From Ditylenchus dipsaci (taxonomy: Eukaryota > Nematoda > Chromadorea > Rhabditida > Anguinidae): a DNA stretch of 64,000 bases. The stretch covers positions 372,001-436,000 of the forward strand of contig SADC01001288.1 in assembly GCA_004194705.1 (NCBI GenBank), read 5' to 3'. Positions 13,947 to 45,806 of this stretch are shown piece by piece; within the stretch, counting starts at the first letter, position 1, and every line of letters begins with the position of its first letter. The position numbers and the translations under genes were made by a program. The notes under the pieces are model-generated. The model did not search any database and was not told the origin of the DNA. It worked only from the letters and a program-made list of their open reading frames with translations.

Positions 13947-16900
13947 TTAGTTAAGTTGCATTTCAGCTTCTTCCATCTCATCTTCCTTATCATCATTGTC
14001 CTCTTCAGCGGGCGGATAAGTTTCCCACGGTATCTCGTCATCTGAAGAGTTGGAGGAAACTAGTCCTGAAAGAAATTGAAATTTTCTTAATTGTCGACTT
14101 TTTTCTTTGAAGCCATTCTAAACAGATAGTTCAAAAAACTCCCTTGCACTTTTTCAGCAATTTAACTGTAGAGTCATGTTAAGCGTCTGGTGTGACACCG
14201 AATAGGTCATTCTTAGAAACTTCTGTTTAGCCCAAAGGATATACCGTATTTTCTCTATTGAACGCTTACGGGGGATTAATTTTCAACTCCTAAAAATTTT
14301 TGAAATTTTAAATCGAAAACGCCCTTAAAGGGGCATGCTCGCCACCGATGGAATATTCCAAAAGGCGGGTACCAGGTCAATTCAAAAAATAATTATTTTC
14401 AAAACAATTTTTGTTGAGTATTTGACGGGGAATAAGTAATCAAAAACATTGGCAGTGTTAAATAGCATCGGTGGCCTAGTGGTGAAGGACAGTATACCAA
14501 GTGCACAGAAGATAATTAAACCACCTGGATCGTATCCAAATCACCTGGATGTTACCTAAATCCCATTGATGATGCCAAAACCACGTGGATAGTATTCTTT
14601 GCACCCACAGTGTTTCGAATCGTTAACCTCGATTTTGAGAAAATTTTGCGGAAATTTAATTTTCTTTATCTGAACTAACCGGCTAGGGGAAGATTGCCAA
14701 AAACGAAAATTGCCAAACGTATGTTTTGCCAAAACGAAGATTGCCAAAACGAAAATTGCCAAAACGAAAATTGCCAAAACGAAAATTGCCAAAAACAAAA
14801 ATTGCGTTGCAGCTAATCGAAAATAAAATTGTAATTTTTTGGTTTGAGAAAATACTAATTTCGAACTATGATTTTATTATTTCACATTTCACTCTACGGG
14901 TCACGTAGAGGGGCACCTGGGCTTATGGAGAGGTGTAGCTTGTGAAAGTGTAGCTTCTAGAGAAGCTTGACTGTATTAGAACCAGAAATACTGCAGTTAC
15001 AGGAGCTTTTTAAATCAAGGTTATAACCGTATTTAAGTGAAAAATCGTTGGGAACTCTTCAGGTGGTCTAGGTAGAAGAGGGGAAATAATTTTGGGCTGG
15101 AAAACGGAGCCGGAGGATGGAGACAAAAATCAGGCAATGTCCATCCCTGCTATCCAGCTGGTTTAGATTTTATCCAGATGCTTTGAGCACTATCCAAGTG
15201 GTTTGGGTGGTGCAAGAAGTTCAAAATAATGACTTTCCCTTCAAGACAATAACATAAAAACATTAAAAAAAATATGTGAAAAATGCATGGTTCGCAAAAA
15301 CAGCAAATTTGCTGAAATGCAGCAAAAATAATTGGCGTTGTGTGTTTATTGAAAACAGCAAAATTGCAGCAAAAATGCAGCAAAATTTTTGCTGCATTTC
15401 AGCAAAATTTTGCTGCATTTCTCCGTCTCCCACATATTACGCGTTTTGCATTTTTCCAACTATATTTTTTGCTTTGTTTCTTTCTGTAGTCAGAAAATAT
15501 ATGAAACATCCGTATAACAGCAATACCTAGGCTATATGCAGCCCGTAAAAGTCACTCTGAAAGGGGAGGGAGGGATTTTCATATAAGCATCGGCTAGGTC
15601 ACAGGTTCAAATCCACCTGGATGCATGACCTATTTTTCACACCATTTTTCATATTTTATTTTCAAGTTTGGTATGAAAATAATGCTCATTCTAATGTCTA
15701 TCCGACAAGAGGGACTGCTGGGTACCCAAACTGGGATCCCCACCTGAGTACCCCTCCCGTGTACAGGATGGTTTGGAAAAATTCGGAAAATCATAAAAAA
15801 GTTTAAGTTTGAATTTTATTTGTCTGCAACTCATTCATATTTGTTTAAGTATAATATATTTTGTGTTTCGTATAGAAGAGCTTACAGGTAGCTTAAATTC
15901 TGTCACCGATTTTCCTGGGTAAGTCGATGGGGCAAGAAGCTACCTACGCGAAATTTTCAATATTTTCCGAATCTTTTTGGATTACTCGATACTACTCCAC
16001 CTTGGTACCTCTTTTCTGCGTAGCTCTATCCTGTGTACTCCCCCACCTGGGTACCACCACTGAGTACTACCTCATGGTTATTCCCGTCCTAGGTACTCCT
16101 CATATTGGTATCCCTCACCTGAGTAACACCAGCTGGGTACCCCCACCTGGGTCCACCAACTACTCAACTACGAAGATCGGGCCACCTGAGTACTGATCGT
16201 GAGTGATGGTAAACTTATAATTTTTTTAAGATTTTCGCTATTTAGATTGGCGATTTACAGCATTTTTTCGTTTGATAGACCAAACCTAAGTCAATCCTAG
16301 AAGCTTTTAGGCTCAAGAGGTGTCTGAAAAGTTCTGAATCCCTTCTTCGTCTTCGCTGTCATCCTTCTAATCTGTCCTTATCTCTTTCTTTTGTTCCTTT
16401 TTTAGAGTCAGAGTTGCACGAGGAATAATATATAAATGCTTTCACATTAAAATTACTATAAAAAGTTAGTAGCTCGCGAAGGTTTGATCAAGAGAAAAGA
16501 GAGTATGTTCGACGAATAGGATGGCCCTAGATTGGACGATTTTAAATTTTATTTATTACTAAATTCCGATTTTCAACTTTATTATAGCTTAGATATAAGC
16601 CATAGCCTAGAATCATGGCTACACATCGGTATAAAAAATGTGTAATTGTAAAGAAGATACAAAACATCGATCAAGGAAAAACACAAAATGAGGCAGCTGA
16701 TTCAGGTAGGCTTCAGCCTTCAACTCAGCTGTTATAGTTGTTTAACCATGCACTGATAGTCTCGCCGGATAGCCATGAGGATGAGCATTATTTTCATACC
16801 AAACTTGAAAATAAAATATGAAAAATGGTGTGAAAAATAGGTCATGCATCCAGGTGGATTTGAACCTGTGACCTAGCCGATGCTTATATGAAAATCCCTC

Positions 16901-18068: not shown

Positions 18069-21000
18069 CTAAAATTAGAAAACTTTTTGTGCTTGCTAAA
18101 AATTTAGATTGCACGCCTCAATTCAAACTTTTTTTTATTTTATTTCCGACTTTTGGGTGGTTAGACATGATTTTTTCTCATCAACTATATGTTTCACAAT
18201 GATTCCGAATGACCACCCACTAATTTTGACTTGGTTTCAGACCCACCGAATTTCTCGTATATCACCCAAAAATTCTACAGTTAACTCGGGGGGTCTGATA
18301 CCAAGGTAGAGTTATGGGTGGTTATTCGAAACTGTTTTAAAACAAATATTCTACGAGAAAAAACCATACCTAAGTTGAAATGTGAAGCGCTTCATACAGA
18401 GTAAGTAAATAAATTCGAACGCTTTTCAATGGCCATAACTTTTTGTTCAGCCGGATCCCAAATTCTGTAAACGCAGAACGACTCAGTTTTTAATAAAACT
18501 TCGTTTGGTATATAGTGTGATCTCACTGTTGTTTGGCCTCGGCCATCCAGAGGCCATCCACACACCAGGACCTAAACCACAGGGGGACCAAGCTAAAATC
18601 GTGTTTTTCACATTATATACCAAACAAATTTCGACCCTACCGGAGTATACCCCCCCCCCCAAATGGAATTTGTTTAAAAGTGTTTCTAGCACCCTATATC
18701 GACTCAAAATCGCCTTAGAAGTTCAAAAAAAGCATTATTTTATAGTTCTGGTCAATAAAAAATCGAGTTTTGGGCATTTTTAAATCTCAACCATATGACT
18801 GTTTTACCCTGTTTTTCAACATGGGGCTGGGCAAAAAGTACCTCTAAATGCCTTTTTGAGCAAGAGTCTTTCTCGGAATCATGTCTTAGGTAAGTGAGTG
18901 CGCGCATCTCTAACCGACCAAGCCCCCTGCGCCCCCGAAGGGGGCGCAGGGGGGCTTGGTTGCTTGGGGTTGAGATGCGCACACCAACATACCTTAGACG
19001 CAAATCACTCGAAAGTGACTCTGGATGCATGAAAAAGCATGCATACCAGAGTTTCTTTATGCGGTAGGCCACAGTATTCAAAACTATGTTCAACATTTTT
19101 CTTTTTGGAATAAATCGGCCTCTTTTTGGTCCCTTACTACCCCAAAACATCCCTAAGTCCTTTAAAAATGGTCAAAAAAAGTAATTTTGGGTGGTCCCAA
19201 AACTCGATTTTTTATTGACCAAAACTCAAAAATAATGCCTTTTTTGAGTTCCTGAGGCAATTTTGAGTCGATATAGGGTGTTTGGAAACACTTTTAAAAA
19301 AATTCCATTTGGGGGGGGGGGGGTAAACTCCGGTAGCGCCCAAATTTCTATGAAAAACTAAGTCGCTCTGCGCTCACTAATTTCGAAATTTGGCCTAGTC
19401 AAAAAGTTATTGGCGTTTAAAAGTGTTCGAATTTCTTGTCTCACCCTGTACAGTCAAACCTCGATAAACGGACACCCCAAAAAGTTTGTTCCCGCCTAGG
19501 GTCCCACACTTTTTTTACCCCGATTTCTGAATATTTTTGCTAGTTCTGTTTTGACAGTTTGGTCGCAATTATTGTGAGGATTCCGATTTTGCCGATCATT
19601 TTTCGTAATTATAAAAAATCTTAATTATGAAAAAAGACGAACTTTTTGGGGTGTCGGTTTATCGAGGTTTGACTGTATATCAAAAATGAGTATGGATTAG
19701 GAACAATCGATTATTAGGGCATTTTTTAAATTGAACTTGCACAAAAACTCGCATTTGACCAGAGTTTTGCGTATCACACTAATTTTCTTTGGCTTTTCTA
19801 GTGGGTAGCACACATCATTAAGCTGGATGACTGAGTCATCGTCAATCTTGTAGAAGGATAGTGGACGCAACAGGCACAGACGAAGTCCTACAAGTCACTT
19901 TGTCAAAAATTAATTTGTAAAGTTACAGACCGTTGAGTGACAAGAACTGTTTGTAGCGCTGGCCTCCATTGGCCACTTGGATTCGCTTCATTAACTGCTG
20001 AACAGTGGCATTTTCAGGGAGGGAGTAGCCCTGTTTCTGACCATTGTGGTCTATGAACACAGTGATGTAGAAGGGCGCTGCACTTCTGTCACCACCTGCT
20101 CGCAATCTGTAAAACATGTGGGTGGGCAGACTTCTAGATCTAGCCAGCTCTTAGTGTCTCCATAGCTAGAGCACTTGACCATGAAAATTTAAAATTTAGG
20201 CACCTGTCAGTGAAGGCAAGCAAGCAGTCTTGCTCAATGTTATAATGTGCGAGGGACATCTCGTCCTCTAGCTGCTGACCTGCAAACTTGGTAATGCATC
20301 ATCAGTCTTATGTCAGGGGTTGCTTACACGTGTTAGAAGAGGGGAAAAGGGCTAGGGGAAACTTAGCAAAAACGAAATTCGCCAAACGCGAAAATATCCG
20401 AAACAAACATTGCCAAAACAAATATTGCCAAAGCGAAACCGCCAAATCGAAATTCGCCATAACGAAATTTACCAAATCAATATTTGCCAATATTAAATTT
20501 GCCCAATGTCAGTTTCTCATGAAAAAGTTCGCTCATCGCTAAATTGCTACCCTATTTTTCCAAAAATCCCAAAAATGTATTTTTTGACGCTAATTGCATA
20601 TACCCCCCCCCAAATCAACTTTTTTTAAAAGTGTTTTTAAACACCCTATATCGACCCAAAATTGTCTCGGGAGTTCAAAAAAGACATTATTTTTGAGTTC
20701 TGATCAATAAAAATATGAGTTTTGGACATTTTGAAATTTTGACCATTTGCCTGTTTTGGCATGTTTTGGTCACTGGAGCTGGGCAAAAATAGTCTCTAAA
20801 TGCATTTTTGTTCAAGAGTCTTCTCGGAATTATGTCTAAGGAAAGTGAGTGCGCGCATCTCTAACCAACCAAGCCCCCTGCGCCCCGAAGAAGGCGCAAG
20901 GGGCTTGGTTGCTTGGGGTTGAGATGCGCACACCCACATACCTTAGACGCAAATCACTCGAAAGTGACTCTGGATGCATAAAAAATGTATGCATACCAGA

Positions 21001-24000
21001 GTTTATTTATGCGGTAGGCCCCAGTCAACAAAACTATGTTCAACATCTTCCTTTTCGTTTAAAATTGGCCCCTTTTTAGTCTATTTCCACCCTAATACAG
21101 CCTTAAATCCCTTCGAAAACGGTCAAAATGGGTACTTTTTGGTGGTCCAGACACTCGATTTTTTATTGACCAGAACTTAAAAATAATGTCTTTTTTGAAC
21201 TCCTGAGGCGATTTTGAGTCGAAATAGAATGTTTGGGAACATTTAAAAAAAGTTGATTTGGGGGGGGGGGTATATGCAAGTAGCGCCTATTTTTTTATTT
21301 TTTAATCTTTAAACGGCACTAGTATGAACCGCTACTGGCTTTTTAAAATCTTTTACGGCATCACTAATTCTTCTAAGATTAACTTGAAAAGTTTAGAAAT
21401 ATTGCTATTTTCTTGCCTGAATATATTTTTTCTTAGGCTTTAGGAAATTTTATCTACAGTCAACTCACCTTGAAATATCAAAAACTGGTGTTTTCCCTCA
21501 GTTCCTGTGATCTTCTGTATCCTGGCCACCAAATGTTTGACAGTGCAAGTCCTGTCTACAGCCAACGGCAGTGTTTTTTCGTCACGTGTCTTGATGACTA
21601 CGTCACAATAGTCCAATCTCTCCAAATGACCCCAGTTCTGACCGGCTGAGAGTTTGACTGGGAAGCGGAGCTTAGCCTGTTCTCCATCTTTGAGGAATCT
21701 TTGAAAGGCTTTTTCCATGCTGTCTTTTAGGATAATGGCTGTCTGCTCCACACATTCTTGAGGCACTTCTACTATCAACTCGTCTGTAAAATAATGTTAG
21801 TATTAATTTGATACTATAGTTACATTCTACCATGAATCTGCATCACAATACGACCATGGAATTTCTGCTCTGCAAAATATTTTTTGAGTCGACGGTTTTC
21901 ACTTTTTAAAATTCACAGTTATACCTTGTAGCCGTTTGTCAGTGTAAATTAAGGCTTTTCGAAACATTTCAGAAGCAGTTCCCTGGAAAAGGCTTTGTTT
22001 CTAGTTAAATTTTTCGAAATAATCCATAATGATAAATAATGACTCTACTAAGAGTCATTAAATAATGAATATACTAAATAATGGCTCTATCTGCTTTGAC
22101 ACACAGCGCCATCTACCGTATTTTCTCTAATTTAACACCCCCCCCCCCCAATTCAAATTCGTGTTTTTTGGCATTGTGTTTTTGACCCACTTTTCGAAAA
22201 GTTTTCTCAGGCAAGCTATAACTCATTTTGTAGCTCATCTCACTGGCTACAAAATGAGTGGTAACTTCCATAAAAGCAGTCTTCAAAAAGTGGGTCGAAA
22301 ACGCAATGCCACAAACACGATTTTGAACGAGGGGGGACTTAAATTAGAGTAAGTACGGTATTCCAGTTTTTAACAGGTTTTAAGGCTTTTACTTTTTTAG
22401 TTTTTAAGCTACAGTGTAACTTCAGATTTTTGAAAAAATACAAAATGTGAAATTTCAGATTGCACTAATAAAGCTGACCGCAATGAACAATAAATCTTGA
22501 AAGAGCATCATGCAATCGCTTACCGAATTAGCTCAGTAGTTAGCCAAGAATTAGGTTTTAAACACATTTCAGACCTTTTAAAAATGCTCTAAAATTTGTT
22601 TTCTATCGTTTTATGAGACTAAAATGGCCATTGTGAAAGTGACTAATTATAGGATCTTGGGTCTATGACGAGCCTGATCATCTTTTTGTCAACCATAATT
22701 TTTGACGCTACTACTCTATATGAGTCCTCTGCAAAAAAGTGCTTGGCTCCTCTGTTGGTTTTTAGCTGTTTTTCAAAAAAAGCTAACAAGGCTTTAAAAA
22801 ATCCTGAGGGGAGGGGGTTTCTATAGCCCGGCTGGCCTCCCTCTGGGTACGTCTATACCGGGGACCCTAGAGTAGCGGAGCCTAATTTTCAATTAGCCAG
22901 TTACCTGAATGATATAGTTGATGCACTGTCTGCCTATTTTCTTATCATCCTTCTGAATGTCACCGATGGTCGAAGAGAATTGTTTTTTGCGTCCCAAGAA
23001 AGTCTCGGCATACAAGGTCTCCCTGCACTTGTCCATTCTGCTCTCTATCCAGCATTTGATTTCTGAATTCGATTAACCCTTGAATTCAATAAAACTACAA
23101 ACAAAGCAATAAAAAGTTACTTGGAAACAGCTGGAAAAATCGATTGATCAGAGCCTGGGCTTCTACTTTTGTAGCATTGATTTCGTGAGCCAGGGACTCA
23201 GCACCCATGCCATAGATAATGGCATAGCACAACTAAAATATTATTCTGCTATTTTACAACTTTATATATAACTGACTTGTTTAGATTTTTGTCTGGAGAT
23301 GGCCACCTCTTCCGTACTGAACATAGTAGCCATTTTGTCAAATGGATCTACCCCGTCAGCGGCATTCAACAATTTAGCCAGGCTTTTGTCTAAATTTCAG
23401 CACAGTATTTTTTTCTATATTTTTTTGTAAATCCGAAAATCAAATCACACCAGAAGAAAGCTGACACAGCACCCTCAACTCAAGTTGGCAATAGTCGGCC
23501 GCCACGAAAATGCATCCTAAACAGCACACAAACTTAACACATAGTCATACACAGACTACCATATCGACTACCATATTTACTTTAACAAATGGCCCTCCTT
23601 ACATTGTGTTTTGGACACACTTGCTGCTCTTGGCTGCTCTCAGGCAAGTTACCGTATAACCTCTTTTAATCCCCAGGGGGATTATTAATCAACCCTCCTC
23701 GGAGGGTGGGGGATTATTAGAGGGTGGGGGATTAATAGAGGGAGGGGGATTATACTTCAACCTTTTTAGCGCCGAACGCGCCGCAAATTTTTTTAAAAAC
23801 GTTATTTTAAAAATTGTAGTTCTAATTTATGGAATTAAAAATTCCGCCTATATTTTTGTCTTACGTGTATTTGACGTCTTAATTTTCGTCTCACCTTTCG
23901 CTTACTTTTTTCTTCCACATGATTTTGTATATCCAGAAAGCTACTTTGCGTTCAAAAGTCGACTTCAGCTGTACAACTGCTCTCCAACAAAGCCAGACCA

Positions 24001-27000
24001 TAAGCCCTAGTGGCGCGAAAGTCTTCCACCATTCCTTCTCGTTGCGTTTGGTAGCGATGCCGAGTCTCTCCACTCTACGCAACGCCAGTTACAATATTCC
24101 GTACATACTATTAGTGATCTATCAATCGCAGAAGTTGAACAGGTTTTTCGACCCTAGCGATGCAAATGCTTAGAACACAAATAATTAAATCATTCGTTTT
24201 TTATAAAATTTCGGTACATTACCCAGTGTTCATTTCCGTAGTCGAATTTACGGTTGCGATTTATGCGGCTGCGATCCGCCAGCACTTGAGATCGTCTTGG
24301 AATGGGTGGATTGAGCCCGACAGGAATTCTCTGAGGAAGTGATTGTCAAACTGTTTAATGGTTAGTTTTGATATTTCTCTTTAAGTATCAACGCAATTAT
24401 TTGCTTTGTGCCTTCAACAAATCCGTCAATGGATCAGAGGATATACAAATAGCGGGCTTTAAACCAAGTGGGCCAATTGAATGGCCTTGACATTTTTTGC
24501 AAGATTAGAGAAAAAACTAAGTCGAGATTGGCAGGACATTAAAAAAATAAGCCCTAGAATGTTGACGAAAACTAGATTTTTATCAAAAATATCAATGAAA
24601 ATAAGCTGTTCGATAGTGTTTGAAATGAAAGCTGAATTTTATTGGATCAAGGCCTCGTTTGTGAAAAAAATCATTAAGTTTTAACATGGAAATTAACTAG
24701 TGAAATGTTTAAAAAAAACTAGCAAGGTCACCTCGAAAATCGGAGGGGGGATTATTAGAGGGTGGGGGATTATTATTCGACCCCTCTCGGGGGTGGGGGA
24801 TTATTAGAGGGTGGGGGTTTAATAGAGGGTGGGGAATTAATAGAGGTTACACGGTACCACTAATTTTGTAGCCAGTGAGATGAGCTACAAGATGAGTGGT
24901 AACTTGCTTGTCAGAAGATTTCAAAAACGGGCCGAAAACACAATTCCACAAACACAATTTTTGAATTTAGGGGGTCAGACAGAGTTGTGAAATTTTCCGG
25001 AAAATTTCCTGGAAAAAAAATAAAATTTCCGTAAAAAAGAGAAAAATAGAAATATAGTCAACATTTATCAAAAACTACTCGTTTTTTGATCAATATCTAA
25101 TCCTAATTCGACTAAGAACTTTCTATTTCTCCAAAATACATACTGACGAAAAATTAGGCCGATTTGTCCGGGAAATTTCCGGAAAACTTCCCGGGAAAAT
25201 TTTCATTTCACAACTCTAGGGTGCGGTTATTAATGTAAAAAGGATGTTCGTGAACTTGCCTTGCGGAGCGATTAGCACTGATCGAGTAGAATAATGACTA
25301 ATTATAGGGTCCTGTAAAGTCTACATTTAAAGGGGCATGCTCGCGCCCGATGGAATAATTCTTTCATTTCAAATTGGCGGGTACCAGGCACGCCAGAGAT
25401 TTTGAATTTCAAATTCAAATTTTCAAATCATTTTGAGTTCTGTGCTTTATCTTTCGTGAGTTGTCGGTGATTTTTGCTCTCATTTTACGCTTGATTTTCT
25501 TACTGACTGTTTTGGTTTTAGCGTCAAAGAGTCTCGTGTGCTCAGGTGGTAATTTTCGCGCATGCTCACGTTCTTCCATCGATCTTGCTGCTTGTATTAG
25601 ATAAGTTTTATTTATTTTGTGCGCCGTCATTTTCTTTTCCCTTGTTCTGTCTTTCAGGTGTCTATTTGGAGGTCTCAAGAGCGAAGGATATCAGCAGTGG
25701 TTATATTTATGATTTTAGGTTCTCTCCTCAGGTATTATTAGACGTTTTTATACAAATTACGCTGCGACTGCATATATCCTGTCAAAGTCCATTATAAAAG
25801 TAAATAAATATAGCAGGCAACCATTTACGTAGTGATTTTTGACTTTGTCAGCCTGTATACGGTCGAAGTGTCACTTTCTATGTGCCTTCGTGCTCCATTC
25901 CATGGCAGTATGGCTAGGCCCTTGTAACATATCTGTCGGAGCGCGTCAACTTCTCTGAAGAGGCTGCCTAGCGAAAGTGTTCATTCCGCTGGGCTTTTTA
26001 CCGCTAGTTTTCAGGTTCGATCGACAATTGGGACCACATCTTTACGTCTTGCATCTTTGTCTCTCTTGCTTGGTTCTTGGCATTTGTAAAGTCCGCTAAA
26101 ACACACACCTTCGGAAATGAGAATGTAAAAGTTGTTGCAAACACGAAAAATGTGGGCAAAACATTGAGTTACAAGAAAGTGCGGACTGAATGTAGGTAGG
26201 TTATGATAACCTAAAAATTTTATCGACTGGAATCGGAAAATTGGAAAGACCTAACACTGCCGCATTACAACACTGCCGTCCAAATATCTTCTTTACGTCA
26301 CAGGATTCCTCTTTCACTTCTTTCTTCGATTTTCACGTTAATAATTTTAGATCACCAAATAACCTTTTTATCAGTTAGACCCGCTATCAGACCCACTTTT
26401 TACTTTGGTCTCCATGTTTTTTTGGCTTAGGTGCGATTTCAGAGAAAATTTTAGCGTAAAGCGTGTTTACCAATAAAAAAACTTCAACTTTGACTCCAGG
26501 AACAAACTAGAGCAGGAGTACTCTCAATCGGGAGTGCTGAACGAGCCACACAGACCAAAACATACCTGACTAATTGATGGATACAGAAAATGGAAGGAAA
26601 ACACACTGATCAATTCGATTACTGCGGCAAAAAGAGTATGATCCTTTCGCTCTCAATGCAGGTGGAAGTTATATCACCTGTTGTATTTCAGCTTAAATGA
26701 AAACCGGTAACATTCTGACTGCCGGAGGAAAGAACCGTTTGTAATTTGGAAGAGGAGAAAGGGATAGAGGTCTTCTGCCGAAATGGTACCCATTATCATT
26801 GCTAATAATCCTGACACCAATCGGACTCGTGTTCGTCTGACTTCTGGAGCCAAAAAAAATCCCGACAGCTAACCATACTCTGATCGGTAATATTGATGTT
26901 TCAGCATATTCGAATATCCTGTTTTCTAAGAATCGTTTTCTGTAACTTTCCGTTCCCGCTCCTGAATTACGACCATCGTCAGGATGCTCCACGAGGTTCA

Positions 27001-30000
27001 CACCATCAACCAATCCATCGATTGCACTTTTCGTCGTCTAGTGGTATGCGTCTCTAACTTTTAGGGGAGTCTATCAGTACAACCATCAACAGCGACGATT
27101 CTTAGAAAACAGGATATTCGAATATGCTGAAACATCAATATTACCGATCAGAGTATGGTTAGCTGTCGGGATTTTTTTTGGCTCCAGAAGTCAGACGAAC
27201 ACGAGTCCGATTGGTGTCAGGATTATTAGCAATGATAATGGGGTACCATTTCGGCAGAAGACCTCTATCCCCTTTCTCCTCTTCCAAATTACAAACGGTT
27301 CTTTCCTCCGGCAGTCAGAATGTTACCGGTTTTCATTTAAGCTGAAATACAACAGGTGATATAACTTCCACCTGCATTGAGAGCGAAAGGATCATACTCT
27401 TTTTGCCGCAGTAATCGAATTGATCAGTGTGTTTTCCTTCCATTTTCTGTATCCATCAATTAGTCAGGTATGTTTTGGTCTGTGTGGCTCGTTCAGCACT
27501 CCGATTGAGAGTACTCCTGCTCTAGTTTGTTCCTGGAGTCAAAGTTGAAGTTTTTTTATTGGTAAACACGCTTTACGCTAAAATTTTCTCTGAAATCGCA
27601 CCTAAGCCAAAAAAACATGGAGACCAAAGTAAAAAGTGGGTCTGATAGCGGGTCTAACTGATAAAAAGGTTATTTGGTGATCTAAAATTATTAACGTGAA
27701 AATCGAAGAAAGAAGTGAAAGAGGAATCCTGTGACGTAAAGAAGATATTTGGACGGCAGTGTTGTAATGCGGCAGTGTTAGGTCTTTCCAATTTTCCGAT
27801 TCCAGTCGATAAAATTTTTAGGTTATCATAACCTACCTACATTCAGTCCGCACTTTCTTGTAACTCAATGTTTTGCCCACATTTTTCGTGTTTGCAACAA
27901 CTTTTACATTCTCATTTCCGAAGGTGTGTGTTTTAGCGGACTTTACAAATGCCAAGAACCAAGCAAGAGAGACAAAGATGCAAGACGTAAAGATGTGGTC
28001 CCAATTGTCGATCGAACCTGAAAACTAGCGGTAAAAAGCCCAGCGGAATGAACACTTTCGCTAGGCAGCCTCTTCAGAGAAGTTGACGCGCTCCGACAGA
28101 TATGTTACAAGGGCCTAGCCATACTGCCATGGAATGGAGCACGAAGGCACATAGAAAGTGACACTTCGACCGTATACAGGCTGACAAAGTCAAAAATCAC
28201 TACGTAAATGGTTGCCTGCTATATTTATTTACTTTTATAATGGACTTTGACAGGATATATGCAGTCGCAGCGTAATTTGTATAAAAACGTCTAATAATAC
28301 CTGAGGAGAGAACCTAAAATCATAAATATAACCACTGCTGATATCCTTCGCTCTTGAGACCTCCAAATAGACACCTGAAAGACAGAACAAGGGAAAAGAA
28401 AATGACGGCGCACAAAATAAATAAAACTTATCTAATACAAGCAGCAAGATCGATGGAAGAACGTGAGCATGCGCGAAAATTACCACCTGAGCACACGAGA
28501 CTCTTTGACGCTAAAACCAAAACAGTCAGTAAGAAAATCAAGCGTAAAATGAGAGCAAAAATCACCGACAACTCACGAAAGATAAAGCACAGAACTCAAA
28601 ATGATTTGAAAATTTGAATTTGAAATTCAAAATCTCTGGCGTGCCTGGTACCCGCCAATTTGAAATGAAAGAATTATTCCATCGGGCGCGAGCATGCCCC
28701 TTTAATGCTTGTTAGTTTTTATTTAAAAATTGCCTTGGGAAGCACATGCATATCTGGATTGGAAGACAAGATACGACCAGCTGAAGCACTGTAATTGTCA
28801 AAAGCAGTCCTGATCCGATTGTCTGGGTACTTTTTAGCGGCGTGTAGAAGACTTGTCAAAGCCTATATTTACAAATAAAAAAAATCAAGTCTTTAACTAA
28901 TTTTTAAATTTGAATTACCGCTAAGGCATTCTCCAACCGTCGCCATTTGATGATCATATCACAGATTGGATGGCTGCAAACAAAAGTACACAGCTTAGAT
29001 TTTTACAAACTTAACCAGTACGCCTAGATAGCTACTCTTTTAATTCTTTAGATATAAATTTTTTGGCCCTGTGTGACAATGGGGGGGGGTTGCCTTGGTT
29101 CCCGCTGCTGACTTTTATTGTGAATTTGCAATTATGCTAGGACTAGTGCTGGGCAATTCTCCGCTCTTTGCCCCGAGATTCCGCGCTCCGAGCCGAGAGC
29201 AAGAGCAGGATTGAAAGTTCTGAGACGACGATCCAAGATCGAGAGCAGGAGCGAAATTTTCGAAGTCAGGAGCCAAGAGCATGAGCAGGAACGAAAATTT
29301 TGAAATGCCCAGCACTGGTTAGGACAGACTAAAACATAAGTTTAAGATACATTTAAATCCGTCGTAACATACACTGGCCTACCCTTGCCTAAGCCTAAAA
29401 AATCACACAAAGTTCAACTGGGCTGAGCAAGGCAAAAAGAACCTGCCATTGTAACATACGGCAAATTTTTTTTCTCGTTTTTTTTTCGTACGTTTTCTTC
29501 ACAAGAATGCTACAGTCAAACCTCTTTTGTTAAAAAAACTATCTTTTTAAATTCATGTTTCACGATCGATCAACTTAAATGACTTACAAAATATCCCTAT
29601 TTGCCAAAAAAATTTGGTTCCACAAAGCACGTTGAATAACGGTTGGACTAAAAAAAAAGAAAAAAAACTGACTCTATTTGCTTGAGCACATCAGCACTGG
29701 TGGACAGATGGCGTCGGGTGTTTCCAGCATTATTAGGGATGGACAGTTTCATTTTGGAAAACAGGATCTGCGAATTCAGTCAAATTTAGAGTCATTTTTT
29801 GTAGAAATTAAAACAAGATAAACTTTGGCCACTTCACCCGACGAGTCAAGATTGAATTTTTCTCCACAACACTGGAAAACCCTTTTCTCTTGGATGGTCA
29901 TCTGAATTTATAATTCTAGATAGTTTATAGATATCTATCGGGCATGACTTGCCTGACTAACAATCTTCTCAGACAACTTTTTGCACTTGTCTTTGTCAAA

Positions 30001-33000
30001 AGCGATGCCGAACAGTTCAATGTTGGAAACCACCTCTAGACTTTGTAAATAGAGTGACTGCAGATTCTGCATTCTGGCGCTGGATGAAGACAGTAGTTTG
30101 AGAGCCACTACATGGGTCAAGTAGGCATCGATGGCAGAGTTGATAATGGCCTAAAAAGGTTAGCAAAAACTAATTGGTTATTTTTTGAGGTAAGAAAAAA
30201 TAGATTTTGACTGTACAGTCAAACCTCGATTTAACGACCCCCACCTCAAGTTTGTTCCCACCTCGGGTCTGACACTTTTTTTAACCCAATTTTCAAAATG
30301 TTTTGGCGATTCTTTTTCGAGGGTCTGGTTGCGAATATCGTAAGGATTCCGATTTTGCCGATCGTTTTTCGAATACCTAAAGTTTTCGCTTTTAAAAAAT
30401 CAAAACCTCGATTTAACGGCCCCCCTTTTGAAAATTAGAGGGTCGTTAAATCGAGGTTTTGGTTTTTTAATAGCGAAAACTCTAGATTTATGAAAAACGA
30501 TCGCCGAAATCGGAATCCTTACGATATTTGCGACCATACTGTCAAAAAAGAATCGCTAAAACATTTTGAAAATGGGGTTAAAAAAAGTGTCGGGCCCTAG
30601 GTGGGAACGAACTTGAGGTGGGGGTGGTTAAATCGAGGTTTGACTGTATAACGAAAAATTTGTAGGATATTCTGATGGGGCAAAGCTTTTCCTTGCTGCT
30701 AAAAGACTTCTTTTTGCTCCCAAAGGACTTTTTTTTGCTGCTAATTTTTTTTGCTGCAAAAAGACTTTTTTTTGCGCCAAAAAGACTTTTTTTGCTGCAA
30801 AAAGACTTTTTTTTGCTCCCAAAGGACTTTTTTTTGCTGCTAATTTTGTCTGCTGCAAAAAGACTTTTTTTTGCTCCAAGAAGACTTTTTTTTGCTGCAA
30901 AAAGACTTTTCGTGCTGCAAAAAGACTTTTTTTTGCTGCTAAAATACTTTTTTTTGCTGCTAAAATACTTTTTTGCTGCAAATATTCTTTTGCTTCACAT
31001 GCCTTCTTCGCAGCATTTTTCACTAGAAATATCAATTATTATACATATTTTGCGGTCAATTTGTCCACAAACTTTTATTATTTCTTAGGAACGAATAAAC
31101 CATGCTGCTCAACCCAAAATTGTGTGCTGAAAACAGTTTGTTGAGACCAAAATCCTGTTTTGACTAACTAGAATCTTTAATACCCTGGGTTATTTATTAA
31201 AAAAAACAGTACTCACTTTAAGGTAGTCGCCACTTATGCACTTGGACGGGGGGGGGGGGGGGTTTTATATTGATTTTAGAAAAGTGTTTAAACATCTGCT
31301 AAGTAACTGTTTTACGCTCAGAATGATTTAAATCTATTTTCTGACACCTTCCTAAATAAAAAATCAATTTTTTGGAAAAAAAATTCAACCAAAATTTAAG
31401 TTTTTATTTAATTTTTGCCCCTGAAATGCATAAATACCAGGTAGTCGACCTTAAAATTAAGGGAATCATTCAGACTGAGGATGTATATAATTATATCATG
31501 CCTAGAGCAGTGCCTTGAGTGATTTAGTGTGTATAAATTTAGTGTGTATGAAAAGTCGGCTTTTGCCGCGAAATTTTTAGGCGGTACTTAAGTTGTTCAG
31601 CCGGACCCCACCTGGAGAATAAGGAACTACCTAGGTTTCGAAAGTGTGATTAATTGATCTGTGGACGAATTGGCGCATGCACGAATTGACTGTGGACGCA
31701 TTGACTGTAAACGAATTGACCGCAAAATATGTATAATAATTGATATTTCTAGTGAAAAATGCTGCGAAGAAGGCATGTGAAGCAAAAGAATATTTGCAGC
31801 AAAAAAAGTATTTTAGCAGCAAAAAAAAGTATTTTAGCAGCAAAAAAAGTCTTTTTGCAGCACGAAAAGTCTTTTTGCAGCAAAAAAAAGTCTTCTTGGA
31901 GCAAAAAAAAGTCTTTTTGCAGCAGACAAAATTAGCAGCAAAAAAAAGTCCTTTGGGAGCAAAAAAAAGTCTTTTTGCAGCAAAAAAAGTCTTTTTGGCG
32001 CAAAAAAAAGTCTTTTTGCAGCAAAAAAAATTAGCAGCAAAAAAAAGTCCTTTGGGAGCAAAAAGAAGTCTTTTAGCAGCAAGGAAAAGCTTTGCCCATT
32101 CTGATGCAAGCTGATTGAAATAAAAAATAATAATTGAATTTTTTCACTTGCAAAATGTTCGAAATGTAGTTTGAGCAGTCTAAATTAATTTCAGGCAGAA
32201 AATAATGATCACGAACCAAATGATATAAATACAGTCGAACCTCAATATAACGCCACCCCTTCAAGTTCGTTCTCGCCTAGGGTCCGACACTTTTTTGAGC
32301 TCTCTTTATGAAGGCTTTTTTTCAGTTCTTTTCTGTACAACACCATGTACACGAAAAAAATAGAGGGACTAAAACCAAGGACTCCAATTTTACCGATCGT
32401 TTTTTTTGAAAACTAAATAGTTTTGCCATTTTAAAAACATAACCTCGATATAGCGCCACTCTTTTTTGAAAACAGGAGGCTTTATATCAAGGTTTGTTTG
32501 TTAAATGGCAAAACTGTTTGGTTTTTAAAAAACGATCAGTAAAATCGTAATCCTTGCGATATTTGGGACCAGACTGTAAAATATAACTAAAAAATCCTTC
32601 AAAGAGGTAAAAAAAGTGTCGGACCCTAGACGGGAACGAACTTTTGGGGGTGGCGTTATATCGAGGTTTGACTGTATAATTTTGGGTTCATCGAAAAAAG
32701 TTGGCTTTTTGAACGGTTTTCCCTATTGTTTGTTTCAGGGTTTTATGTTGTTGTACCCAACGTAGGGTTAGCCGCTGCGCTGCCAAGAGAAGCACACTCC
32801 CCATTGCAAGACATTGGGGTGTGAATATGTGTGGTGATGTGTGGAGCTAAAGTCTCCACACATATATGTATGGCTCAAGCCCTGGTGCTGGTCTTGGCCA
32901 TGTACACCACCATGTACGCGAAATAAAAAAAATAAAGGGACCAAGGCGAAACACCACCTCTTTGTTGAACAGGGTCATGCTTTTTCCATCACAGTTTCGT

Positions 33001-34478
33001 CGTTTTTATCTTGAAAGCTGACTTACAGGCTCTATATCAGGAATTATTTTAACAGCCCATTCTGGTGGAGCACAATTGAATCTAAGTGAAAACTAATGAT
33101 AAAAACAATTTGCTATAAATTTGCAAACCTTTTAGCCATGTCTCTGATATTCAGTTTTATTGGCTGAATTGGGACATCAGAGTCCATTACAAGGCATTCC
33201 AGTGTTCGCACACATCCCACACTTCTGAAATAGCCAAAACTTTTCTGGGCGTCTACTCCGCTAATTTTAGGTAATTGAACTCAAGACCCGCTCTCAACTT
33301 GTCGAAAACGAAAGTTCTCAAAAATTTGCCTTGGCCCCCCCCCGTGTCGCAAATCGTGAAAAATTCGAAAAATTTTTTTGATAAAAAATGGTTAAAAAGA
33401 GTAAATAAATGGTTTTTGAGACTCTTAGAAAAAAATTTCCAAAAAAACAAAAACAGTGGGAACCAAGGCAAAATTTTGAGAACTTTTTTTGCGAAGTTTC
33501 CCCAGCCCGAGTCTTCGATTTTGAGTCTAGGTCCAAATAGCTCACTTAAAGAATTCGAGTCCCGCTCGGAGTTAGTTAACCCCGTAAAAGTCAAAGTGCA
33601 CCCCCGCTTTCCAAAGAGTATGAGTTCTCTAGCCGTACAACAGGGTGGTGCATATTCAGAAAACCCTGATTTTTTGCAATGTGGAGTGTGCTGCTCTATC
33701 GCGAGAAGCTGCGAAATACTCTAGGTATATCTACAAAAAAATTAGTTATAATAATAAGCGCAACACCCTTAACTCGTACCTTTCGTTTTAAATACTCTTT
33801 GGAGGGGTGCACTTCATATACCGTATTTCCTCTAAAATAGCCCTCCTTCCAAAATAGCCCCCCCCCCTCTACTTTGAGGGTCTGTATCTCGGAGCAGAGT
33901 AAATATTTTGCAAAGCTGTTTGATACGTTTTCTTAACTCCCACGAGCTCTACCGATTCCACTTTTTAGATTCTTAATTTTCACCCAAAAATCTCGAAATC
34001 GAATTCAAATTTTTCTGAAAATTGGAGGTTTGAATAAAATAGCCCCGGGGCTATTTTAGAGGAAATACGGTACTGTCTGGGATACCCAACTGAAATTTTT
34101 GGTGTCCTATCTGCAATTCTGTTACCCGACCTGAAGACAATTTCTCAGAAAAACCTACCTAGTCTTGATGCTGCAAGACGAGAACAAACTGCGAATGGAG
34201 CGGAGAAATTCTAGAGAATCAGGAATCCATTTGGTGGTCTTGTCGCTGGTCAGAAACTCTTCGAGCAGGGATTTCAAATCCTCCATCCCACAATTGGTGC
34301 CTGCAAACTAATTTTATTTGATATTCTTGTGCAATAGTGAAACTATTTACAAGAGTCCTTCATCTTGACCATCGGCAAGATAAAGTATTGGTTTTCGGTG
34401 GCGCTGATCATCAGGAACTCGCCTTTCACAAAGTTTAGGCCACATATCTCAGGGTAGCCCAGTTTGTCTCGGTTGCAG
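13947..34478 (-). CDS. A-family DNA polymerase (Pol theta/nu type) fused to two ubiquitin-like domains, copy A
   Basis: Template-directed DNA synthesis, probably nuclear repair or lesion bypass by family analogy. Exons in order, all phases compatible: 34478-34351, 34300-34159, 33224-33129, 33081-33027, 30150-29953, 29901-29824, 29767-29673, 28973-28919, 28862-28734, 25311-25260, 23516-23451, 23389-23277, 23232-23121, 23062-22905, 21982-21925, 21869-21831, 21783-21469, 20279-20204, 20106-19931, 19887-19780, 18068-17733, 14065-13947 (about 900 codons). Motif A reads [11 protein letters not shown]. The O-helix is [16 protein letters not shown], with the Arg, Lys, Tyr and YG positions kept. Motif C is QIHDEL, split by an intron inside the Asp codon. 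[18 protein letters not shown] matches the Pol theta/nu LHPLPGLILEWRR region. No large theta-type inserts are seen. Two beta-grasp domains and a tail follow motif C. The 5' end is incomplete and no helicase is seen. Confidence 0.92.
14488..17372. mobile_element. Foldback-like insertion of 2.9 kb
   Basis: Flanked by GTGGTGAAG at 14,479-14,487 and 17,373-17,381, a 9-bp duplication. Ends share CCAAGTGCA and its inverse. Interior: degenerate CACCTGGAT units (14,520-14,590), an ATTGCCAAAACGAAA array (14,695-14,800), inverted arms of about 400 bp rich in GCAGCAAAAT (about 15,285-15,690 and 16,790-17,190), degenerate CACCTGGGTACC units (15,715-16,200) and AAGTGCACCCCCC runs (17,200-17,345). No transposase recognised. 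Both arms carry a pol III B-box-like GGTTCAAATCC (15,604-15,614 and inverse near 16,850). Absent from copy B. Confidence 0.65.
17373..17431 (+). other. tRNA-like fragment with B box
   Basis: GGTTCGATTCC at 17,410-17,420 is a perfect pol III B box, with AGGCA at the 3' side as in an acceptor stem. The 5' half was separated by the foldback insertion: the A-box-like CCTAGTGGTGAAGG is at 14,474-14,488. The intact counterpart is at 45,637-45,702. Likely a tRNA-derived sequence carried by a transposon, not a working tRNA. Confidence 0.45.
18641..19340. mobile_element. Large hairpin with GC-rich core, type 1 arms
   Basis: Arms: CCGGAGTATACCCCCC at the left and GTAAACTCCGGTAGCGCC at the right; further in, ACCCTATATCGACTCAAAAT pairs with its inverse. 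The centre (18,881-18,997) is a near-perfect palindrome around AAGCCCCCTGCGCCCCCG. It lies in the intron between polymerase exons 19887-19780 and 18068-17733. Copy B: 46,980-47,682. Confidence 0.7.
19451..19675. mobile_element. pogo/Tigger-like hairpin MITE
   Basis: CAGTCAAACCTCGATAAACG and its inverse flanked by TA (19,449-19,450; 19,676-19,677). Such ends and TA target sites are characteristic of pogo/Tigger elements in the Tc1/mariner group. No coding capacity. Copy B: 47,792-48,015. Confidence 0.75.
19780..21612 (-). CDS. Tandem ubiquitin-like domains of the polymerase fusion
   Basis: The domains follow [10 protein letters not shown], the usual end of an A-family polymerase, within the same exon (21783-21469). 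Ubl1 starts near [15 protein letters not shown] and runs through HQFLIFQG; exon 20279-20204 adds [17 protein letters not shown]; exon 20106-19931 opens with LRAGG. This aligns with ubiquitin end to end. Equivalents of Lys6, Lys11 and Ile44 are kept, while Lys48 and Lys63 are Gln. Ubl2 ([20 protein letters not shown], then [10 protein letters not shown] and [20 protein letters not shown]) follows after seven residues and has no terminal Gly-Gly. Junction phases are 1, 2, 1, 1. The GTCTGT donor at 19,930 is chosen because it keeps the beta-grasp frame. Confidence 0.9.
20586..21287. mobile_element. Large hairpin with GC-rich core, type 2 arms
   Basis: Ends GACGCTAATTGCATATACCCC and GTATATGCAAGTAGCGCC. 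The central region (about 20,830-21,030) matches that of 18,641-19,340, while the outermost arms differ. It lies between the exon that starts Ubl1 and the exon that finishes it. Copy B: 48,924-49,627. Confidence 0.7.
22114..22360. mobile_element. TACCGTATTTTCTCTAATTTA hairpin
   Basis: The left TACCGTATTTTCTCTAATTT pairs with AAATTAGAGTAAGTACGGTA at the right, and TTGGCATTGTGTTTTTGACC pairs with its inverse inside. In copy B only the left end remains (near 50,454). It lies in the intron between polymerase exons 23062-22905 and 21982-21925. Confidence 0.65.
22704..22878. mobile_element. Small GCTACT hairpin
   Basis: GACGCTACTACTCTATA at the left and CTAGAGTAGCGG at the right are inverted; the interior is poorly matched. 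Probable decayed member of the GCTACTCG hairpin family. Copy B counterpart at about 50,634-50,809. Confidence 0.4.
23652..24854. mobile_element. TA-site element of 1.2 kb, copy A only
   Basis: The ends CCGTATAACCTCTTTTAAT and ATTAATAGAGGTTACACGG are inverted and flanked by TA. Copy B has the uninterrupted site (CAAGTTACCACTAAT at about 51,544). Near both ends are GGGGGATTATTAGAGGGTGG repeats. The middle has a minus-strand frame of 63 codons (24,082-23,891) with no known motif. The insertion is itself nested in an older hairpin (CTTGCT...CTCAGGCAAGTTACC) in the intron upstream of the motif A exon. Confidence 0.75.
25258..25259 (-). other. GC splice donor before the motif A exon
   Basis: The exon 25311-25260 ends CAAG|GCAAGT. 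Joining G to GATGCATT at 23,516 gives Gly-Cys-Ile-Phe-Val-Ala-Ala-Asp, the expected lead into motif A. The same GC donor is kept in copy B (CTCAAG|GCAAGT near 52,983). Confidence 0.75.
25331..28701. mobile_element. 3.4 kb palindromic element in a TTAA site
   Basis: AGGGGCATGCTC at the left and GAGCATGCCCCT at the right are flanked by TTAA on both sides. Copy B has the empty site with one TTAA (53,053-53,056). The arms (about 25,331-26,937 and 27,092-28,701) are almost perfectly inverted, so each short frame occurs twice, for example a basic 87-codon frame at 25,678-25,415 and 28,354-28,617. None resembles a transposase. The spacer holds a half tRNA-like sequence near 27,034. TTAA use and absence of a footprint suggest mobilisation by a piggyBac-type enzyme. 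It expanded a small polymerase intron to 3.4 kb. Confidence 0.88.
27034..27075 (+). other. tRNA 5'-half-like sequence at the palindrome centre
   Basis: TCGTCTAGTGGTATG resembles a pol III A box and the D-arm of a tRNA, and it is followed by a possible anticodon-arm stretch. No B box follows. It sits in the unpaired spacer of the TTAA palindrome. Confidence 0.35.
28732..28733 (-). other. GC splice donor after LPK
   Basis: Exon 28862-28734 ends CCCAAG|GCAATT. Reading through reaches a stop after four codons. Splicing to 25,311 gives [18 protein letters not shown], matching the family's NIP...RxAF stretch. Copy B keeps the same bases, with an intron of only about 50 bp. Confidence 0.75.
29144..29317. 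mobile_element. hAT-like MITE, CAGTGCTGGGCA ends
   Basis: TAGTGCTGGGCA at the left and TGCCCAGCACTG at the right, with 8-bp flanks GCTAGGAC and GTTAGGAC. GAGAGCAAGAGCAGGA-type purine repeats lie inside. Copy B: 53,491-53,664. Confidence 0.7.
29951..29952 (-). other. GC splice donor after IVSQ
   Basis: Exon 30150-29953 ends AGTCAG|GCAAGT. The next exon starts ATGACCATCCAAG after ATTCAG. The joined protein [19 protein letters not shown] continues the thumb region and leads to [11 protein letters not shown], equivalent to FSFTSSDDIAEV of Pol theta. The donor is conserved in copy B. Confidence 0.75.
30216..30646. mobile_element. pogo/Tigger-like hairpin, CAGTCAAACCTCGATTTAACG
   Basis: About 430 bp, almost completely self-complementary: GACCCCCACCTCAAG...CTTGAGGTGGGGGTGG, GTTCCCACCTCGGGTCTGACAC and its inverse. 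TA flanks. Only one branch of copy B's polymerase intron lacks it, so it is copy A-specific at this site. Confidence 0.75.
30678..32097. mobile_element. Foldback-like element with AAAGACTTTTTTTTGCTGC arms
   Basis: ATTCTGATG occurs at 30,669-30,677 and 32,098-32,106 as a 9-bp duplication; copy B has a single ATTTTGATG at about 54,596-54,604. Ends GGGCAAAGCTTTTCC and its inverse. Each arm (about 350 bp) is a tandem array of 18-21 bp units of the AAAGACTTTTTTTTGCTGC type. The middle (31,030-31,730) has no recognised gene. Long inverted arms of short tandem repeats plus a 9-bp duplication match the classical foldback (FB) architecture. The Lys/Ala-rich frames read from the arrays are repeat artefacts. 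Confidence 0.88.
32232..32674. mobile_element. pogo/Tigger-like hairpin, CAGTCGAACCTCAATATAACG
   Basis: TA-flanked hairpin with GTTCGTTCTCGCCTAGGGTC paired to GACCCTAGACGGGAACGAAC. Copy B counterpart 54,728-55,158 with many differences. Confidence 0.75.
33821..34070. mobile_element. TA-flanked CCGTATTTCCTCTAAAATAGC hairpin, copy A only
   Basis: CCGTATTTCCTCTAAAATAG and CTATTTTAGAGGAAATACGG form perfect inverted ends with TA flanks. Copy B reads straight through at about 57,603. The interior has a second short stem and no frame. Confidence 0.8.
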
Positions 34479-44901: not shown

Positions 44902-45493
44902 GCTAAAAAAATATAACAAATATAGTCCGAAAAGGTGATGCATAACATCTGAGTAATTCAGGACAAATCCAAACTGAACTATTTGAGTATTTAATTGTTT
45001 TCAATATTTATTGCAGTCTTCTTCACTAATAGCACAATTTGAATATATAGAAAAAAACCTAACAAAAATACACCCAACACAAAAAAATTTGAATTTTTAA
45101 GTTTGAAGTGTTTAGTTAAGTTGCATTTCAGCTTCTTCCATCTCATCTTCCTTATCATCATTGTCCTCTTCAGCGGGCGGATAGGTTTCCCACGGTATCT
45201 CGTCGTCTGAAGAGTTGGAGGAAACTAGTCCTGAAAGAAATTTAAATTTTCTTAATTGTCGACTTTTTTCTTTGAAGCCATTCTAAACAGATTGTTCAAA
45301 AAACTCCCTTGCATTTTTTCAACAATTAAACTGTAGAGTACTGTTAAGCGTCTGGTGTGACACCGAATAGGTCATTCTTAGAGACTGCTGTTTAGCCCAA
45401 AGGATATACCGTATTTTCTCTATTGAACGCCTACGGGGGATTAATTTTCAACTCCTAAAAATTTTTGAAATTGTAAATCGAAAATGCCCTTAA

Positions 45494-45806
45494 AGTGGCA
45501 TGCTCGCCGCCGATGGAAATATTTTGAAAGGCGGGTACCAGGTCAATTCAAACAAGAATTATTTTTAAATAAATTTTCGTTGAGTACACTGCGGGAAATC
45601 AGTAATCAAAAACACTTCCTTCTTTCAATAGCATCGGTGCCTAGTGGGATAGGGGCGGCGGACTGCGAAAATTGGTCGTCGGTTCGATTCCCACTGGAGG
45701 CATAATTTTTCCTCGACTTTTCCAAAATTTCGTCAAAATAATTCTCGTTTGAATTTCGCTGGTACCCGCCTTTCAAAATATTCCCATCGGCGACGAGCAT
45801 GCCCCT
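45494..45806. mobile_element. TTAA-site MITE with tRNA-like centre
   Basis: AGTGGCATGCTCGCCGCCGA and its near inverse ending GAGCATGCCCCT are flanked by TTAA. The ends match the 3.4 kb palindrome at 25,331, so this is a small family member. A tRNA-like sequence fills the centre (45,637-45,702). Copy A has the same insertion with the right end lost (left end 14,329). Confidence 0.8.
45637..45702 (+). tRNA. tRNA-derived sequence (probable pseudo-tRNA)
   Basis: The A-box-like TGCCTAGTGGGATAGG at 45,638-45,653 and the perfect B box GGTTCGATTCC at 45,681-45,691 are correctly spaced. TGCCT pairs with AGGCA as a short acceptor stem; four of five T-stem pairs form. The anticodon stem is weak, so no identity is given. 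It lies inside a TTAA MITE and is best read as a captured or SINE-like tRNA. Confidence 0.4.

What the first reader, a model, noticed from the sequence alone, without database searches (positions are those of the whole stretch)
13947..34478. DNA polymerase of the Pol theta/nu type fused to tandem ubiquitin-like domains
Twenty-two exons with compatible phases give an A-family polymerase with motif A (DYCQLELR), the O-helix ([14 protein letters not shown]) and motif C (HDEL), continuing in the same exon into a ubiquitin-like domain, then a second one, then a charged tail. The exon 21783-21469 encodes both the end of the polymerase ([10 protein letters not shown]) and the start of Ubl1, so the fusion does not rest on an assumed splice. 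I know of no Pol theta, Pol nu or HELQ/POLN family member with this architecture. Inference: a built-in Ubl could recruit repair or proteasome factors, replacing the ubiquitin-binding link other translesion polymerases use.
Basis: partly seen in the sequence, partly recalled or inferred. Interest (0 to 1): 0.92.

Follow-up and report, generated by a model that had tools for sequence, protein, structure and literature searches.

The report
DNA polymerase theta with ubiquitin-like tail
A plant-parasitic nematode's gene for the DNA-repair polymerase theta runs on, within a single exon, into two ubiquitin-like domains, a combination seen so far in only one species and with no known function.

Summary
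On the minus strand, 22 exons (34478-13947) join in phase into 913 codons: family-A polymerase (Pfam E=1.3e-84), a clear ubiquitin-like domain (E=1.1e-15 alone), a weaker second one (E=2.6e-6, just above the cut-off) and a charged tail. Exon 21783-21469 carries both the polymerase end and the start of Ubl1, with no in-frame Met between them. The best match is a Ditylenchus dipsaci UniRef protein that fits the window's own second copy of the locus (58011-45112), so it is not independent. The next relatives, two Steinernema Pol theta-like proteins, end at the last polymerase residue; human Pol theta narrowly heads the PDB matches of the three-nematode profile. Between the copies there are 34 synonymous and 2 amino-acid changes, so the frame is selected, though the Ubl exons are identical and carry no signal. 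Not shown: a transcript, a second species, the 5' end or helicase half, any function. Ubl1 keeps 1 of 4 residues of ubiquitin's usual binding patch, Ubl2 none, which weakens the simplest recruitment idea. Verdict: a real, possibly lineage-restricted Pol theta architecture; function open.

The parts
21614..34478 (-). Polymerase part (residues 1-581): part of the exonuclease-like domain plus the family-A polymerase domain. Exons 34478-34351, 34300-34159, 33224-33129, 33081-33027, 30150-29953, 29901-29824, 29767-29673, 28973-28919, 28862-28734, 25311-25260, 23516-23451, 23389-23277, 23232-23121, 23062-22905, 21982-21925, 21869-21831, 21783-21614
   Evidence: phases, no stop; PF00476, residues 194-576, E=1.3e-84; coordinates of residues
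21469..21783 (-). Fusion exon 17: end of the polymerase (DELIVEV...NWGHLERL) and the start of Ubl1 ([13 protein letters not shown]...LIFQ) in one open exon; identical in the second copy (50121-49807)
20091..21601 (-). Ubl1 (residues 586-660): 21601-21469, 20279-20204, 20106-20091; aligns without gaps to ubiquitin residues 3-76; ends -RLRAGG- then DRS
   Evidence: phmmer alignment to ubiquitin; PF00240 1.1e-15; A5; coordinates
19820..20072 (-). Ubl2 (residues about 667-736): 20072-19931, 19887-19820; divergent, no diglycine
   Evidence: PF00240 2.6e-6, 27.5 bits vs 25.4; weak; partial fold
13947..19819 (-). Basic then acidic tail (residues 737-913): 19819-19741, 18068-17733, 14065-13947 with stop; no Pfam match above a cut-off
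   Evidence: 4 synonymous and 0 non-synonymous differences between the copies in codons 582-913, all in exons 21 and 22
45112..58011 (-). Second copy of the same 22 exons (exon 1 58011-57884, exon 17 50121-49807, exon 22 45230-45112); one base fewer than copy 1 in each of exons 13 and 21
   Evidence: fits UniRef P0001

Best explanation
This is the Pol theta (POLQ-1) polymerase gene of the stem nematode Ditylenchus dipsaci. Its reading frame runs past the usual end of the enzyme into a C-terminal extension of two ubiquitin-like domains and a charged tail, made as one polypeptide. Shown: the frame, the fusion exon, intact catalytic motifs and selection on the frame outside the identical Ubl exons. 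Inferred: the polymerase still extends annealed DNA ends as other Pol theta enzymes do, and the tail is a built-in, non-conjugated docking or regulatory module that contacts a partner (or the polymerase itself) through a surface other than ubiquitin's usual hydrophobic patch. Inferred origin: loss of the stop codon and capture of downstream Ubl-coding exons in the Ditylenchus lineage.
For: 22 exons in phase, no stop. Pfam polymerase and ubiquitin on the one chain. D350, R397, K401, Y409, H524, D525 and E526 fall in columns invariant in alignments with 12 and with 30 other polymerases (numbered there on P0001; positions). Two Steinernema Pol theta-like proteins end at the last polymerase residue. 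The PDB profile search is headed by human Pol theta 6xbu, 288 bits, with Taq at 287. Copy 1 versus copy 2: 34 synonymous, 3 counted non-synonymous (2 amino-acid changes) over 911 codons, dS 0.060, dN 0.0014; codons 582-913: 4 synonymous, 0 non-synonymous. A 332-codon open extension has a chance of about 8e-10 at the local stop frequency. The published annotation of this species used RNA-seq hints (PMC6929663, whole text), and a UniRef model from this species has the same fusion.
Against: Exons 15-20, which include Ubl1 and Ubl2, are identical in both copies and their introns nearly so, so selection on the Ubl part itself cannot be measured. No transcript was seen. No other species shows the fusion: PF00240 appears only in the D. 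dipsaci row among the 120 of 413 hits listed and in none of the 96; but one search was capped and missed even Steinernema, so this says little. The helicase half and the 5' end are not found in the window. Ubl2 is weak. Taq and Pol theta score almost alike. No partner or experiment supports the docking role, and the usual Ubl contact patch is mostly lost.
Confidence: 0.55

Rival explanations
1. The Ubl pair is a degradation or turnover handle: the proteasome or a shuttle receptor reads it and keeps polymerase levels low.
For: Ubl1 is a close ubiquitin relative and keeps Ile44; Ubl domains of shuttle proteins bind the proteasome (general knowledge).
Against: Leu8, His68 and Val70 positions are Arg, Ala and Thr in Ubl1; none of the four is kept in Ubl2. 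No data on protein level.
Confidence: 0.18
2. In the animal, polymerase and Ubl cassette are expressed separately (alternative poly-A, internal start or operon-type trans-splicing) and the fusion exists only as a minor read-through.
For: Nematodes use operons (general knowledge); C. elegans polq-1 has a short, polymerase-only transcript with an internal start (PMC12274878, passages).
Against: There is no in-frame Met between residue 547, in the polymerase, and residue 637, inside Ubl1, so a whole Ubl1 cannot be started on its own in this frame without polymerase residues.
Confidence: 0.1
3. Decaying duplicate: one or both copies are 5'-truncated pseudogenes and the Ubl fusion is incidental.
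For: Copy 2 has one base fewer in exons 13 and 21; the first lies in a run of T, the second does not lie in a run, so read error explains the second less easily. Copy 1 lacks a start; no helicase in the window.
Against: 2 amino-acid against 34 synonymous changes over 911 codons: both copies stayed constrained for most of their divergence. The published assembly of the species is from PacBio reads.
Confidence: 0.1
4. Assembly artefact: the two copies are haplotypes joined end to end, and the fusion itself is a mis-join.
For: The published assembly is 227 Mb against 160-170 Mb by flow cytometry (PMC6929663); homology of the copies stops 9 bases before exon 1.
Against: That concerns the duplication, not the fusion: polymerase end and Ubl1 lie in one 315-base exon, identical in both copies. 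There are no Ns in the window.
Confidence: 0.04
5. Ubl1 is cut after -RLRAGG by a deubiquitinase-like protease, leaving a polymerase with a free Gly-Gly end that can be conjugated.
For: -RLRAGG followed by DRS resembles processed Ubl precursors (resemblance from general knowledge).
Against: Ala stands at the Gly75 position with an extra Gly after it; no data.
Confidence: 0.03

Closest known systems
Nematode Pol theta (Steinernema hermaphroditum P0002, S. glaseri P0003; C. elegans POLQ-1 from a paper)
   Same: Polymerase domain 37% and 36% identical and collinear to the end; catalytic motifs kept
   Different: P0002 carries a helicase-type N-terminal part (PF20470, PF21099; NCBIfam DNA helicase over residues 8-323), P0003 carries PF21099; both stop at the WGxL end. 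Here no helicase is found in the window and two Ubl domains follow. The Pol theta label for P0002/P0003 is mine; their sources call them hypothetical protein or DNA-directed DNA polymerase
Human Pol theta (PDB 6xbu, 8e23, 7zus)
   Same: 6xbu is the best PDB match of the nematode profile
   Different: Has an extra stretch of about 24 residues before motif C (the alignment breaks there); no Ubl (general knowledge)
Pol nu (PDB 4xvl)
   Same: Helicase-less A-family polymerase (general knowledge); similar fold score
   Different: Not among the 60 best PDB sequence matches shown; no Ubl (general knowledge)
Ubiquitin / polyubiquitin
   Same: Ubl1 aligns without gaps to residues 3-76; the tandem arrangement aligns with a di-ubiquitin stretch
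   Different: Only K6 and K11 of the seven ubiquitin lysines kept in Ubl1, K48 and K63 are Gln; hydrophobic patch mostly lost; not a free C-terminus
UniRef 'Ubiquitin-like domain-containing protein', Ditylenchus dipsaci (P0001)
   Same: Same fusion; matches copy 2 of this window
   Different: Automated model; leaves out stretches around the two one-base differences and starts at an upstream ATG

Membership tests
Pol theta (POLQ) | A-family polymerase motifs A, B and C intact | tested here: met
Pol theta (POLQ) | Closest relatives by sequence are Pol theta | tested here: met
   Next hits after the own locus are Steinernema proteins with helicase-type parts, 322 and 319 bits against 181 for the best polymerase-I-type hit; PDB profile best hit 6xbu, though Taq is close behind at 287 against 288 bits. 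Against: with the single sequence, Taq (184 bits) ranked above Pol theta (161 bits)
Pol theta (POLQ) | N-terminal helicase-like domain in the same gene | tested here: inconclusive
   tblastn of P0002 and P0003 finds only polymerase residues in the window, apart from one P0003 hit at 654-691 with E=3.4; sequence beyond 64000 could not be searched
Pol theta (POLQ) | Protein ends at the C-terminal WGxL element | tested here: not met
   Frame continues 332 residues past it. This makes it a variant; I do not count it as defining
Pol nu (POLN) | Closer to Pol nu than to Pol theta | tested here: not met
   Pol theta, not Pol nu, is among the sequence matches shown; fold search ranks Bst, theta and nu together
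Ubiquitin-like domain (PF00240), Ubl1 | Profile match above the curated cut-off | tested here: met
   57.6 bits vs 25.4
Ubiquitin-like domain (PF00240), Ubl2 | Profile match above the curated cut-off | tested here: met
   27.5 bits vs 25.4, but 24.5 bits in the longer query, best E=0.014 in PDB and 8.0 bits with a narrow ubiquitin HMM, a value that 1 of 500 shuffles exceeded
Ubiquitin-like domain, beta-grasp fold | Predicted beta-beta-alpha-beta core and the rest of the fold | tested here: inconclusive
   Ubl1: strand-strand-helix-strand, block pLDDT 62-73 over residues 601-640 of P0001 and 48 over the third strand. With ubiquitin rows: Ubl1 strand-strand-helix at 70-78; Ubl2 strand-strand-helix at 60-76 with a third strand below 50. 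The second halves are at about 50 or less in both models. The 50 listed Foldseek matches of the second model all name ubiquitin, a variant of it, ISG15 or the BAT3 Ubl region's entry, best E=1.3e-3 and none below 0.001, and ubiquitin rows were used to build that model
Conjugatable ubiquitin-like modifier | Free or processable C-terminal Gly-Gly | not testable with these tools
   -RLRAGG- is internal

The most novel reading that the evidence does not exclude
In the Ditylenchus lineage the helicase half of Pol theta was dropped or made separate, and the polymerase instead acquired two ubiquitin-like domains as a new built-in recruitment and control module, so that end joining is wired to a Ubl-reading partner rather than to its own ATPase.
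Probability: 0.2. Interest if true: 0.75.

Novelty: new variant of a known kind. Interest (0 to 1): 0.55.

Why it matters
Pol theta is the core enzyme of a mutagenic double-strand-break repair pathway and a cancer drug target (general knowledge; also titles in the listing). A natural version with a covalently attached Ubl pair would be an evolutionary experiment in how that enzyme is recruited or switched off. It would also bear on how much of the helicase half the polymerase needs: the introduction of PMC5466332 (passages) says the polymerase domain alone restored bleomycin resistance to Polq-null mouse cells.

Tried and rejected
My first exon for the stretch before motif A (24330-24223) broke the phase and has no counterpart in copy 2; 25311-25260 replaces it, fits phase and motif, and exists in both copies. 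The same entry says both one-base differences of copy 2 lie in homopolymers; one search shows that only the one in exon 13 does. Because of this the pseudogene rival went from 0.09 to 0.10 (and the processing rival from 0.04 to 0.03) in this version. My first end for exon 20 (19760) also broke the phase; a GC donor after 19741 restores it, and the UniRef model joins a few codons earlier.

A stand-alone relative of the Ubl1-Ubl2-tail module was sought with 338 residues: 1275 candidates, none at E<=1e-3. A search for longer fused relatives with a chimeric query, scoring only part of it, reached its candidate cap, returned mostly polymerase I and is not informative. Pooling Ubl rows with polymerase rows (A4) put the Ubls on polymerase columns and was dropped; A5 has no polymerase relatives, and its model is poor outside the Ubls (mean pLDDT 44.5). 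NCBIfam gave only prokaryotic-type names. Papers: the listings showed no Pol theta-Ubl fusion (searches listed only part of what they found: 20 of 31, 20 of 21, 15 of 325, 12 of 266). I saw PMC6929663 whole, passages of PMC9071541, PMC12274878 and PMC5466332, and the others as search listings only.

Full report
What is there. The minus strand from 34478 to 13947 holds 22 exons that join in phase into 913 codons and a stop. Acceptors are AG; 17 of 21 donors are GT and 4 of 21 are GC. Pfam finds DNA_pol_A over residues 194-576 (E=1.3e-84) and ubiquitin with two stretches (E=5.3e-21) on the same chain. Ubl1 alone scores 57.6 bits and Ubl2 alone 27.5, against a cut-off of 25.4. Ubl1 aligns without gaps to ubiquitin residues 3-76.

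The fusion. Exon 21783-21469 (315 bases) contains the motif-C continuation, the polymerase end NWGHLERL and the beginning of Ubl1 in one open frame, while the other two frames hold several stops each. There is no in-frame Met between residue 547, in the polymerase, and residue 637, inside Ubl1, so a complete Ubl1 can only be made as a continuation of polymerase residues. At the local stop frequency a 332-codon open extension has a chance of about 8e-10. Two Steinernema proteins, collinear with the polymerase, end at the residue aligned with the last one of LERL.

The species and the second copy. The best database match (95% identity over the whole length) is a UniRef entry from Ditylenchus dipsaci with PF00240, PF11976 and PF00476. 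It carries the two amino acids that distinguish the window's second copy and leaves out the regions of that copy's two one-base differences, so it is most likely an automated model of that copy, not independent evidence. The second copy lies at 58011-45112. The published draft of this species is a PacBio/CANU assembly of 227 Mb against a flow-cytometry size of 160-170 Mb, annotated with RNA-seq hints (PMC6929663, whole text); whether this window comes from that very assembly was not tested. The two copies may be a true tandem duplication or two haplotypes joined end to end; I cannot tell.

Selection. Over 911 codons compared (2 left out for gaps) there are 34 synonymous and 3 counted non-synonymous changes, one of which is a Leu-Leu codon path, so 2 amino-acid differences. 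With 2147 non-synonymous and 586 synonymous sites, unconstrained change would put roughly 29 of 37 changes at non-synonymous sites. Codons 582-913 have 4 synonymous and 0 non-synonymous changes, all in exons 21 and 22. From exon 15 to intron 20 the copies are nearly identical: the six exons have no difference and the introns at most 6 in 1183 aligned bases. Elsewhere they differ more, for example intron 7 by 36 in 693, intron 14 by 16 in 503 and intron 21 by 63 in 766. That pattern suggests recombination or gene conversion over the Ubl region, and it means the Ubl exons themselves carry no selection signal here. Copy 2 has one base fewer in exon 13 (in a run of T) and in exon 21 (not in a run), so either the assembly has residual errors or copy 2 is damaged.

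Which polymerase. The next relatives, at 37% and 36% identity (322 and 319 bits), are Steinernema proteins with helicase-type N-terminal parts (PF20470/PF21099; NCBIfam DNA helicase on P0002); the best polymerase-I-type match has 181 bits. A profile of the three nematode polymerases finds human Pol theta first in the PDB, with Taq almost level (288 and 287 bits); with the single sequence, Taq ranked above Pol theta. The fold search puts Bst, Pol theta and Pol nu together. I call it Pol theta on sequence relationships. The helicase half is not found in the window. In copy 1 a stop lies 13 codons upstream of exon 1 with no Met between; in copy 2 an ATG lies in frame upstream. The 5' end is unresolved. 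In C. elegans the nested gene ceh-10 induces a short polq-1 mRNA that lacks the helicase part (PMC12274878, passages), so a polymerase-only product has a precedent; the gene exons tested beside copy 2 encode fibronectin type III repeats on the plus strand, not a homeobox.

What the Ubl domains can and cannot be. In the alignment with ubiquitin, Ubl1 keeps Ile44 but has Arg, Ala and Thr at Leu8, His68 and Val70, Gln at Lys48 and Lys63, and ends -RLRAGG- followed by DRS. In Ubl2 Ile44 is Ser, His68 is Gln, Leu8 and Val70 fall in gaps, and there is no diglycine. The meaning of these positions is general knowledge of ubiquitin. AlphaFold gives a mostly confident polymerase and strand-strand-helix-strand for Ubl1 (block pLDDT 62-73, third strand 48). 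With ubiquitin rows added it gives strand-strand-helix for Ubl1 (70-78) and strand-strand-helix for Ubl2 (60-76) with a third strand below 50. The second halves stay at about 50 or below in both models. The 50 listed Foldseek matches of that second model all name ubiquitin or a relative of it, linear di-ubiquitin first (E=1.3e-3, none below 0.001), but ubiquitin rows were part of its alignment. So Ubl1 is secure by sequence, Ubl2 is likely, and the full fold is not proven by these models.

Mechanism. My preferred reading is a Pol theta polymerase with a built-in, non-conjugated docking or control module. The catalytic part rests on homology. The docking role is inference, and the loss of most of the usual Ubl contact residues argues against plain ubiquitin-receptor binding. 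A turnover handle is the main rival. No expression, partner or phenotype was available.

Novelty and limits. The listings of seven literature searches, some of them cut to the best rows, showed no report of Pol theta fused to a Ubl. In the protein searches PF00240 occurs only in the D. dipsaci row of the 120 listed of 413 and in none of 96; but the search for longer relatives was capped, and the genome search did not complete, so the spread of the fusion among related nematodes is unknown.

Noticed in passing
window 25327-28705: Near-perfect palindrome (arms about 1.61 kb, 99.8% identical) flanked by TTAA on both sides, with a single TTAA at the empty site in copy 2 (53054): a TTAA-flanked foldback insertion in intron 9 of copy 1.
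   Followed up: partly
window 1-34487 and 35809-58020: Large repeat of the whole region, 93-98% identical in its main blocks and 82-83% in some pieces; near-identity from exon 15 to intron 20 only. Either a duplication or two haplotypes joined.
   Followed up: partly
window 62679-63020 and 63551-63907, + strand: Two exon-sized ORFs with fibronectin type III repeats upstream of copy 2 (PF00041, 2e-10 and 2e-5).
   Followed up: partly
window 12770-13351, - strand: Innexin exon (PF00876, 8.5e-12); it lies inside the repeated region.
   Followed up: no
window 34615-35060, - strand: Exons that look to me like the end of a nucleoredoxin-type gene just upstream of copy 1; no Pfam match at E<=1, label recalled only.
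   Followed up: no
introns after exons 5, 9, 10 and 20 of copy 1: 4 of 21 introns need GC-AG splicing in my model, which seems a high share for one gene.
   Followed up: no
window 15286-15710 and 16760-17190: Inverted repeat arms (431 columns, 96.3% identity) inside the 14482-17380 stretch that has no counterpart in copy 2, in intron 21 of copy 1.
   Followed up: no
   Followed up: no
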